From the NCBI RefSeq assembly GCF_947259345.1, contig NZ_CAMYLS010000033.1, forward strand, positions 1 to 64,000: 64,000 nt of DNA, in the 5' to 3' direction. Positions within the stretch are counted from its first letter, which is position 1; every line of letters starts with the position of its first letter. A program made the position numbers and the translations under genes. Below the pieces are notes generated by a model. It had not been told where the DNA came from. It saw nothing but the letters and a program-made list of their open reading frames with translations, and searched no databases. Shown here piece after piece: positions 38,241 through 63,726 of the stretch. Origin of the DNA: an uncultured Maricaulis sp. GTDB lineage: Bacteria; Pseudomonadota; Alphaproteobacteria; Caulobacterales; Maricaulaceae.

Positions 38241-38265
38241 CGGCCTCACAGAACACTTGTAGAAC
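38237..38265 (+). promoter_or_regulatory. lexA promoter with LexA (SOS) box
   Basis: TTGACG (38237-38242), 17-base spacer, TAGAAC (38260-38265) form the promoter. The LexA box GAACacttgtaGAAC (38251-38265) is the alphaproteobacterial direct-repeat operator GAAC-N7-GAAC and covers the spacer and the -10 region, as expected for autorepression. The same promoter geometry (TTGACG-N17-TAGAAC) is found before the small SOS-type gene at 62932. Confidence 0.85.
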
Positions 38266-38336
38266 AAAACCTCCTATTCCTGATTTGTTCCCGCGACACT
38301 GAGTCGGATTCAGGGAATGCGAACAAGGGGGTTGCC

Positions 38337-39035
38337 TTGCTGACGCGGAAACAGAACGAGCTTTTGCTCTTCATCCATCAACGCATCAAGGAAACCGGCG
38401 TTTCGCCCTCCTTCGACGAAATGAAGGCGGCGCTGCAATTGGCCTCGAAATCTGGCGTCCACCGCCTGATCACGGCGCTGGAAGAGCGCGGTTTCATCCG
38501 CCGTCTCGCCCATCGCGCCCGGGCGCTGGAAGTCCTCAAACTGCCGGAATCGGCTGCTGCCATGGACAATCCGGCCATCCCCAAGGGCGATCTCGGTCCC
38601 AACGTAGTCCGCGGGAATTTTGCCAAGCCTGGTGGTGAGGACCGCGAGACGACCGTAGACATCCCAATCCTTGGTCGCATTGCCGCCGGCGTCCCGATTT
38701 CGGCTATCCAGCACGAGACTGATCGCATGCCGGTCCCCGCCGACATGGTGACGGGCGGCGAGCATTTTGCGCTCGAGGTCAAGGGCGATTCCATGATTGA
38801 AGCGGGCATCATGGACGGAGATACCGTCCTGATCCGCCGCTGCCAGTCGGCCGAGTCTGGCGATATTGTTGTCGCCCTCGTCGATGATGAGGAAGCGACG
38901 CTGAAACGCCTGCGCAAGAAGGGCGGCTCCATCGCCCTCGAAGCCGCCAACCCGGAGTACGAGACCCGCATTTTCGGACCGGACCGCGTCAAGGTGCAGG
39001 GCCGCCTGGTGGGCCTGATCCGCCGCTACCATTAA
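38337..39035 (+). CDS. lexA: SOS repressor LexA
   Basis: A 232-residue repressor-protease. The N-terminal winged-helix domain ([39 protein letters not shown]) binds the direct-repeat operator; the C-terminal S24 domain has the cleavage site region around GRIAAGVPI, catalytic Ser in [10 protein letters not shown] and Lys in [11 protein letters not shown]. The start is a TTG at 38337, supported by AAGGGGG just upstream. It lies downstream of trpC with an SOS box in its promoter. Confidence 0.95.
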
Positions 39036-59296: not shown

Positions 59297-62740
<3,444 letters not shown>

Positions 62741-62836
62741 GCGTCGCTCCTGAAGTCCGGCCTCGAAACTGATCCTGCCCTGCCCCGACCGCCGCCACGG
62801 GCGGCGACGTCGAGTCAGGCCATCAGTCTAGCCGCT

Positions 62837-62932
62837 TCAGGCCGCGCCGAGAACCGATCCCCACATGGCAATCATCCAGGCGAAGCCGAGAACGGCAGTC
62901 GCAGCAGACACATCTTGAACAACACGGCGCAT
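62837..62932 (-). CDS. SOS-induced small membrane peptide, SidA-like
   Basis: A 31-residue peptide below normal ORF cut-offs. It begins MRRVVQDVSAATAVLGF and ends in a hydrophobic stretch with FAWMIAMWGSVLGAA, so a short basic N terminus and one TM helix. The ATG at 62932 has GGGGAG seven bases upstream, a strong ribosome binding site. The promoter TTGACG-N17-TAGAAC and a LexA box GAAC-N7-GAAC lie directly upstream. Size, topology and control fit SidA of Caulobacter, a 29-residue inner-membrane SOS inhibitor of the divisome. I cannot confirm sequence homology, so the name is by analogy. It precedes dnaE by 96 bp and follows lolD. Confidence 0.72.
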   Translation of the reverse strand: MRRVVQDVSAATAVLGFAWMIAMWGSVLGAA

Positions 62933-62952
62933 AACGCTCTCCCCAATCGCGA

Positions 62953-62992
62953 GTTCTGCTTTTGTTCTATTGCGGCACAACGCAGGCGTCAA
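62953..62992 (-). promoter_or_regulatory. SOS promoter and LexA box of the small peptide gene
   Basis: Minus-strand TTGACG (62992-62987), 17-base spacer, TAGAAC (62969-62964), then GAACaaaagcaGAAC (62967-62953) as a perfect alphaproteobacterial LexA operator that shares its first half-site with the -10 element. Repression in the uninduced state and release after DNA damage are expected. The lexA promoter has the same -35, spacer and -10. Confidence 0.85.
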
Positions 62993-62999
62993 GAGGAAT

Positions 63000-63025
63000 G
63001 TTCCAATTTTGTTCTCATGCAGTTC
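63000..63025. promoter_or_regulatory. Tandem triple GTTC half-sites (overlapping LexA boxes)
   Basis: Plus-strand GTTC at 63000, 63011 and 63022, each spaced by seven bases, form two overlapping GTTC-N7-GTTC operators just upstream of the small-gene promoter and 11 bp before the end of lolD. The 11-bp period equals one helical turn, suitable for co-operative LexA binding. Confidence 0.7.
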
Positions 63026-63036
63026 GCGCAGGCTGA

Positions 63037-63726
63037 TCAGTCAGGGATGTAGGGCGTGAGATGCCCGTCCGCGAAGGTCAGGATTCGGTCCATCCGTCCG
63101 GCAAGCTCGTGATTATGGGTGGCCACCAGGGCCGCCGCGCCTTCTGCCTTCACCGTTTGGCGAAAAGCATCAAACACGGTCTCGGAGGTTGTCGGATCCA
63201 GATTGCCGGTCGGCTCGTCGGCCAACAGGACATGGGGCGCATTGGCCAGGGCTCGGGCTATGGCGACACGTTGCTGCTCGCCACCGGACAATTGCGACGG
63301 CTGGTGCAGGAGGCGGTCCGCCAGACCGAGCTGTGTGAGGAGCATTTCCGCCCGCTCCCGCGCTTTGCGCGACGGCACGCCTGCGATCAGTTGCGGCAGG
63401 ACGATATTTTCCAGCGCATCAAACTCGGGCAGGAGATGGTGGAATTGGTAGACGAAGCCGATCTCGCGGCGACGGATGGCGGTGCGCTCGCGGTCCGACA
63501 GGTCGACCGTGGCCCGCCCCCTCACCCGCACTTCACCGGCATTGGGACGCTCAAGCAAACCGGCTGCATGCAGGAGCGAGGATTTGCCGGAACCGGACGG
63601 ACCAACCAGACCGACAATCTCGCCCGGTGACAGGGCCAGGCTGGCGCCCTGCAGAACCGGGAGCTCGCCCGCATCGGTGACATAAGTCCGGTCGATGGCA
63701 TCAAGTTCGAGGACGAAATCACTCAT
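63037..63726 (-). CDS. lolD: Lipoprotein-releasing ABC transporter ATPase LolD
   Basis: A 229-residue ABC ATPase. Walker A GPSGSGKSS (residues 42-50), signature LSGGEQQRVAIARAL, Walker B with VLLADEPTGNLD, and the His switch in LVATHNHEL. With LolC/E it extracts lipoproteins from the inner membrane for the outer membrane. Its start overlaps the end of the permease gene by eight bases. The small SOS gene lies downstream. Confidence 0.93.
   Translation of the reverse strand: MSDFVLELDAIDRTYVTDAGELPVLQGASLALSPGEIVGLVGPSGSGKSSLLHAAGLLERPNAGEVRVRGRATVDLSDRERTAIRRREIGFVYQFHHLLPEFDALENIVLPQLIAGVPSRKARERAEMLLTQLGLADRLLHQPSQLSGGEQQRVAIARALANAPHVLLADEPTGNLDPTTSETVFDAFRQTVKAEGAAALVATHNHELAGRMDRILTFADGHLTPYIPD

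What the first reader, a model, noticed from the sequence alone, without database searches (positions are those of the whole stretch)
62837..62992. Unannotated 31-residue SOS peptide gene upstream of dnaE (SidA-like)
The sequence shows a 31-codon frame with GGGGAG ribosome binding site, a TM-like peptide, a TTGACG-N17-TAGAAC promoter and a perfect GAAC-N7-GAAC LexA box over the -10. Established: Caulobacter SidA is a very small SOS-induced inner-membrane inhibitor of division. Inference: this is the same type of checkpoint peptide here, and dnaE may be partly SOS-controlled by readthrough from its promoter.
Basis: partly seen in the sequence, partly recalled or inferred. Interest (0 to 1): 0.87.

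Follow-up and report, generated by a model that had tools for sequence, protein, structure and literature searches.

The report
SOS division-inhibitor micropeptide gene, sidA ortholog
A 31-residue membrane peptide gene next to the main DNA polymerase gene is very probably this bacterium's version of Caulobacter SidA, a DNA-damage brake on cell division, and look-alikes under the same damage switch occur in many other alphaproteobacteria.

Summary
On the minus strand, 62840-62932 encode MRRVVQDVSAATAVLGFAWMIAMWGSVLGAA, preceded by GGGGAG, a TTGACG-N17-TAGAAC promoter and an exact GAAC-N7-GAAC LexA box; two more exact boxes lie just upstream. The frame is found in 18 of 19 genomes of the genus (pN/pS 0.24), each time with a LexA box. 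It is the positional ortholog of Caulobacter sidA: a peptide at the same place before dnaE in Caulobacter matches NCBIfam's SidA model, and the two sides' profiles match (E 3e-7), while the model itself misses the window peptide. The organism's own lexA (in the window), recA and uvrA carry the same box. Further out, among 110 dnaE loci sampled from the class, LexA-boxed transmembrane micropeptides precede dnaE in 12 other families, and as a set match the order-level profile; of 11 further profile hits inspected, 9 had a box (7 exact). Seven searches of one open library listed no title or abstract describing this wider family. Division inhibition via FtsW/FtsN is inferred from Caulobacter, not shown here. 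SOS readthrough into dnaE is undecided.

The parts
62837..62932 (-). sidA ortholog, 31 codons plus stop (MRRVVQDVSAATAVLGFAWMIAMWGSVLGAA)
   Evidence: hydropathy maximum 1.69 over 17 residues
62939..62944 (-). ribosome binding site GGGGAG, six bases before the ATG
   Evidence: GGGAG in 16 of 18 genus loci (counted by eye)
62953..62967 (-). proximal LexA box GAACAAAAGCAGAAC, overlapping the -10
   Evidence: a box in 18 of 18 genus loci
62964..62969 (-). -10 element TAGAAC
   Evidence: TAGAAC in 14, AAGAAC in 4 of 18, by eye
62987..62992 (-). -35 element TTGACG
   Evidence: TTGAC in 17 of 18, by eye
63000..63014 (-). distal LexA box, 47 bp above the proximal one
63011..63025 (-). second distal LexA box, 58 bp above the proximal one, sharing a GAAC with the former
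59297..62740 (-). dnaE, DNA polymerase III alpha subunit
   Evidence: NF004226, 1452.6 bits, cut-off 1002
62741..62836 (-). sidA-dnaE spacer, able to form a strong hairpin
   Evidence: -46.9 kcal/mol, z -2.23, 5 of 200 shuffles as good
63037..63726 (-). lolD-like ABC transporter ATPase upstream of sidA
   Evidence: TIGR02211 247.7 bits, under its cut-off of 307.75
38337..39035 (+). lexA, the presumed repressor
   Evidence: TIGR00498 185.4 bits, cut-off 110.95
38251..38265 (+). LexA box upstream of lexA (presumed autoregulation)

Best explanation
This is the sidA gene of this bacterium: a LexA-repressed gene for a 31-residue, single-pass inner-membrane peptide that stops division during DNA repair. 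Shown from sequence: a conserved coding frame, a ribosome binding site, a promoter whose -10 lies inside a LexA box, extra LexA boxes upstream, position before dnaE as in Caulobacter, and profile similarity to SidA. Inferred: RecA-stimulated LexA cleavage frees the promoter; the peptide inserts with its basic N-terminus in the cytoplasm and holds the FtsW/FtsI/FtsN complex inactive, as Caulobacter SidA is thought to do, until LexA recovers.
For: Frame in 18 of 19 genus genomes, the miss being 65% complete; pN/pS 0.24 over 153 pairs of 18 distinct CDSs. LexA box in 18 of 18. Of 69 order-level dnaE-upstream loci (73 taken, 4 dropped for lack of a dnaE motif), 58 carry a TM micropeptide + RBS + box of at most one mismatch (37 exact); reverse strand 0 of 69, shuffles 0 of 1380. 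A peptide from this place in G038 scores 59.7 bits with NF033228 SidA, cut-off 35; G038's contig has the length of a contig titled Caulobacter sp.. Of 80 named-collection loci kept of 175 found, mostly titled Caulobacter or Phenylobacterium and two Caulobacter vibrioides, 79 have dnaE downstream and 79 a box with at most one mismatch, 56 exact. Profile of window-side peptides (A1, 10 rows) against Caulobacteraceae-side peptides (A2, 11 rows): probability 93, E 3.2e-7; 36 overlapping FtsW membrane segments reached at most 29. The same box precedes the genome's lexA, recA and uvrA. [quoted passage not shown] PMC4211646, passages).
Against: NCBIfam's SidA equivalog model does not match the window peptide at E up to 1, nor anything in its genome. 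FtsW residue 31, site of another suppressor mutation in PMC4211646, is V rather than A. The lolD gene next to sidA here is seen within 1.2 kb upstream in only 29 of the 80 named-collection loci, so only the dnaE side of the neighbourhood is shared throughout. No expression, localisation or interaction data were found for this organism. In the class at large 85 of 110 loci examined showed no such peptide at dnaE.
Confidence: 0.85

Rival explanations
1. An SOS-induced membrane toxin of the TisB/DinQ type: the peptide depolarises the inner membrane and induces dormancy instead of binding the divisome.
For: Size, hydrophobicity and LexA control would fit equally.
Against: Position and profile agree with SidA; no Pfam or NCBIfam match. 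Antisense control was not examined.
Confidence: 0.07
2. The reading frame is mainly a leader for dnaE: its translation or its promoter tunes dnaE expression in the SOS response, and the peptide is secondary.
For: Adjacency to dnaE recurs in many families; no terminator-like site in between; strong hairpin in the spacer.
Against: Peptide sequence is conserved; spacing to dnaE varies from 47 to 1268 bases within the genus; lolD is visible upstream of dnaE with or without the peptide (16 of 25 and 42 of 85 loci), so adjacency may be inherited; some LexA-boxed homologs show no dnaE within the stretch held.
Confidence: 0.06
3. A chance ORF beside a real LexA-controlled dnaE promoter.
For: The LexA motif alone is barely commoner genome-wide than its control (67 against 57).
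Against: pN/pS 0.24, 18 of 19 genomes, 0 of 1380 shuffles.
Confidence: 0.01

Closest known systems
SidA of Caulobacter crescentus (CCNA_02004; NCBIfam NF033228)
   Same: Length (29 against 31 aa), one hydrophobic segment, M-x-R-x3-D/E start and FxWM core, LexA box in the promoter region, dnaE next downstream.
   Different: Below detection by the NCBIfam model; a second tryptophan and a WGSVLG tail; LexA boxes 46-48 or 58-59 bp apart, where many Caulobacter loci have two imperfect boxes 17-18 bp apart.
DidA of Caulobacter crescentus
   Same: Small membrane peptide acting on FtsW/I/N (PMC4211646, passages).
   Different: DidA is SOS-independent, induced by DriD; here a LexA box is conserved. No sequence comparison was made.
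YneA, DivS, ChiZ and SosA of Gram-positive bacteria
   Same: SOS-induced division inhibitors (PMC4211646 passages; abstract starts for YneA and SosA).
   Different: PMC4211646 calls yneA, divS, chiZ and sidA unrelated genes; no sequence relation was tested here.
TisB and DinQ of Escherichia coli
   Same: SOS-regulated single-pass membrane peptides (DinQ: abstract start; TisB recalled).
   Different: The window peptide matches no Pfam or NCBIfam family; no antisense partner was looked for.

Membership tests
SidA (functional family) | Very short single-pass membrane peptide | tested here: met
   31 aa, hydropathy 1.69 over 17 residues; membrane localisation itself not tested
SidA (functional family) | LexA box in the promoter | tested here: met
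   consensus GTTC-N7-GTTC in PMC12700426 (passage)
SidA (functional family) | Same chromosomal place as Caulobacter sidA, next to dnaE | tested here: met
   79 of 80 named-collection loci; window
SidA (functional family) | Profile similarity above unrelated membrane segments | tested here: met
NCBIfam NF033228 div_inhib_SidA (equivalog model) | Score over the curated cut-off of 35 bits | tested here: not met
   no match for the window peptide at E up to 1; none in G000. Not filed under this model
SidA (functional family) | Induced by DNA damage through LexA | not testable with these tools
   needs transcript data
SidA (functional family) | Blocks division by interacting with FtsW/FtsN | not testable with these tools
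   FtsW present, F145 and A246 kept, A31 is V
TisB/DinQ-type SOS toxins | Sequence family match | tested here: not met
   no Pfam or NCBIfam family matches; whether those libraries hold TisB or DinQ was not checked
TisB/DinQ-type SOS toxins | Antisense RNA control and membrane depolarisation | not tested
   not searched

The most novel reading that the evidence does not exclude
Caulobacter SidA is one branch of an ancient, class-wide family of LexA-controlled transmembrane micropeptides kept beside dnaE, so a LexA-to-micropeptide-to-septal-synthesis checkpoint is ancestral to much of the Alphaproteobacteria and fills the role that SulA has in gammaproteobacteria.
Probability: 0.6. Interest if true: 0.78.

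Novelty: new member of a known kind. Interest (0 to 1): 0.62.

Why it matters
[quoted passage not shown] The window peptide shows that sidA reaches outside the part of the order in which NCBI's model can see it. The wider set (LexA-boxed micropeptides before dnaE in 12 other families among 110 loci sampled, with a matching overall profile) gives a concrete, testable list of candidate checkpoint peptides, and a reason to ask why the gene stays next to the replicative polymerase.

Tried and rejected
Generic promoter and terminator scan: no hits either way. Pfam and NCBIfam with the window peptide: nothing. NF033228 across 398 order genomes: over cut-off in 42, the listed ones all in family f3, and mostly weak short hits elsewhere, so not useful outside that family. 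Raw LexA motif counts: 67 against 57 in the control, so I relied on conservation. First drafts of the locus script were wrong (ignored locus orientation; one search miscounted the offset) and were replaced. The FtsW row L210 was picked in a wrong frame and dropped. The original sidA paper (10.1101/gad.2038911) and a second paper looked up by DOI (10.1128/JB.01419-07) are not held, so what they say on SidA conservation was not seen. No structure prediction was run: a lone 31-residue helix would add little.

Full report
What is there. On the minus strand, between a lolD-like ABC ATPase gene (63037-63726) and dnaE (59297-62740), lies a 31-codon frame, 62840-62932, with stop at 62837-62839. Upstream, in order: GGGGAG six bases before ATG, a LexA box GAACAAAAGCAGAAC (62953-62967), the -10 TAGAAC that shares its GAAC with that box, a 17-base spacer, TTGACG, and two further overlapping exact boxes, 63000-63014 and 63011-63025. 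TAGAAC departs from the E. coli -10, which is why the generic scan is empty; it fits the Caulobacter -10 as I recall it. In the genus alignment TTGAC is kept in 17 of 18 and (T/A)AGAAC in 18 of 18 (counted by eye).

The box is a LexA box in this organism. The consensus in Caulobacter is GTTC-N7-GTTC, the same motif read on the other strand (PMC12700426, passage; PMC3323433 says the same of alphaproteobacteria, passage). The genome's lexA gene is itself in the window, 38337-39035, with a box at 38251-38265; exact boxes begin 130 bases before the matched part of recA and 82 before that of uvrA. The motif alone is weak: 67 exact copies in the genome against 57 in a backwards control.

It is a gene. 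The peptide is found in 18 of 19 genomes of the genus; the exception is a 65%-complete assembly. The 18 coding sequences are all distinct, third codon positions vary most (24 of 29 columns against 17 and 6), and pN/pS is 0.24. All 18 have a LexA box that begins 34-59 bases before the ATG. Fourteen of 18 have a second exact box, either 46-48 or 58-59 bases above the first, about one helical turn apart; the window has both. PMC12700426 reports that about 97% of Caulobacter SOS promoters have one box (passage), so the doubled arrangement is a local feature worth a footprint.

It is sidA by place and profile. Upstream of dnaE in other genomes of the order the same arrangement recurs. I took 73 loci outside the genus from the best-scoring dnaE hits listed (387 of 398 genomes matched; near relatives are over-represented, family f2 is absent and f5 has one locus). 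Four had no recognisable dnaE motif (L078, L079, L114, L118); 58 of the remaining 69 had a 26-34-residue hydrophobic frame with a ribosome binding site and a box with at most one mismatch, 37 of them exact. The picking rule favours boxed frames, so I ran it on the opposite strand (0 of 69) and on 1380 shuffles (0). The 11 without are L068, L100-L108 and L112; ten are of family f4, and L068 has an exact box but no frame that passes. In G038 the peptide at this place is 29 residues and scores 59.7 bits with NCBIfam's SidA model, cut-off 35. G038, G220 and G145 contigs have the lengths of contigs titled Caulobacter sp. (two) and Phenylobacterium sp., which ties the unnamed family f3 to Caulobacteraceae. 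Of 175 relatives found in the named collection the best 80 were kept, mostly titled Caulobacter or Phenylobacterium, some only by order, class or less; 79 have dnaE downstream, 56 an exact box within 120 bases and 79 a box with at most one mismatch; lolD is visible in 29; two are titled Caulobacter vibrioides, one with an exact and one with one-mismatch boxes. Among 14 named control genomes one passes the SidA cut-off; C. vibrioides is among the seven that ring. The window-side profile (10 rows, genus, family and one f4 sequence) matches the Caulobacteraceae-side profile (11 rows) at probability 93, E 3.2e-7; 36 overlapping membrane segments of four FtsW sequences gave at most probability 29. 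The NCBIfam model itself matches neither the window peptide nor anything in its genome, so I do not file it under that model; the claim is orthology by place, promoter and profile.

What it does (inferred). [quoted passage not shown] mutations in ftsW or ftsI suppress it (PMC4211646, passages, not the whole paper). CCNA_02004 is its locus tag (PMC11034885, passage). Here FtsW is present; F145 and A246, where mutations suppress both SidA and DidA, are the same as in the Caulobacter sequences, and A31, site of a further suppressor, is V (numbering by the FtsW of G278, in which all three letters agree with the paper's). The most likely working is LexA cleavage, expression of the peptide, and a hold on the FtsW/FtsI/FtsN complex.

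The dnaE idea. There is no terminator-like site, so readthrough is possible. Against taking it for granted: the 96-base spacer folds into a strong hairpin (-46.9 kcal/mol, z -2.23); a TANNNT element directly after the sidA stop is kept in 14 of 18 congeners and could be dnaE's own -10 (counted by eye, my reading); in G017 1268 bases, with open frames on the other strand, separate the two genes. Undecided.

A wider family. A profile of 30 order-level peptides, run over 385 genomes drawn from the class, matched 45 at E up to 0.1, most of them weakly. Of 8 loci outside the order that I inspected, 6 had a boxed peptide and 5 of these dnaE downstream; 2 had neither. I then took dnaE starts over the class with a profile built from the window and those five loci (367 of 385 genomes matched) and examined 110 of the listed loci; this choice leans towards relatives of the seeds. 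Twenty-two of 110, the window included, have the peptide with box (21 exact), in 12 other families (session labels f8, f9, f14, f46, f62, f86, f95, f120, f125, f127, f130, f141); the opposite strand gave 0 of 110. Of 25 loci with any such hydrophobic frame, 22 have the box, whereas of 1100 shuffles 42 have a frame and 0 a box; an exact box in the other orientation lies within 400 bases in 8 of 110. Twenty class-level peptides (a few trimmed by me, and including those found with the order profile, so partly circular) match the order-level profile at probability 96.8, E 2.5e-10, against at most 17.9 for the membrane-segment controls. Single members are diverse and some may not belong. A cleaner test: a combined peptide profile (28 rows) found matches by protein alone in 43 of 367 genomes at E up to 0.05. 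I inspected 15 of its loci; 4 were known already from the box search. Of the other 11, 9 have a LexA box (7 exact, 2 with one mismatch, the latter weak evidence) and 2 do not; dnaE follows in 6 of the 11. They lie in f14, f74, f86, f95 and f130. Three of them are among the 110, which makes 25 of 110 loci with a peptide; they had missed the first rule by length or distance. The lolD neighbourhood is visible upstream in 16 of these 25 and in 42 of the other 85 (80 of the stretches reach only 900 bases), so the dnaE linkage may partly be inherited neighbourhood.

Print. Seven searches of the open-licence PubMed Central library showed no title or abstract start that describes SidA outside Caulobacter or a LexA-controlled peptide upstream of dnaE in other alphaproteobacteria. 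I saw listings, plus passages of PMC4211646, PMC12700426, PMC13384398, PMC11034885 and PMC3323433. The original SidA paper is not held. The comparative LexA study PMC3323433, in the passages seen, names dnaE2 but no such peptide.

Judgement. A well-supported orthology for the window itself, and a more surprising, still partly sampled, extension of the SidA kind across the class.

Noticed in passing
window 38251-39035 (+): lexA lies in the same window, with one exact LexA box 72-86 bases before its TTG start; the repressor and its presumed target sidA are about 24 kb apart.
   Followed up: yes
window 63000-63025 (-): Three GAAC half-sites at 11-base steps make two overlapping distal LexA boxes, 47 and 58 bases above the proximal one; 14 of 18 genus loci keep an exact distal box in one register or the other.
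   Followed up: partly
window 62741-62836 (-): The sidA-dnaE spacer folds strongly (z -2.23) and begins with a TAGACT element whose TANNNT form is kept in 14 of 18 congeners (by eye), a possible promoter of dnaE itself.
   Followed up: partly
L006 (G017) 1597-2864: In one congener 1.27 kb, starting with a long inverted repeat and with open frames on the other strand, separates sidA from dnaE.
   Followed up: no
L100-L108, L112: Ten loci of family f4 have no SidA-like frame upstream of dnaE, although the f4 genus g10 has one with an exact box (L109, L110).
   Followed up: no
L133-L147 and other named-collection loci, about -60 to -30 from the sidA ATG: Many Caulobacter sidA promoters have two imperfect boxes 17-18 bases apart (GAAC-N7-GAAT, then GAAC-N7-CAAC).
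   Followed up: no
L363 (G757), L373 (G600), L378 (G628), L380 (G711): Boxed SidA-like peptides with no dnaE seen downstream in the stretch held; moved genes or contig ends.
   Followed up: no
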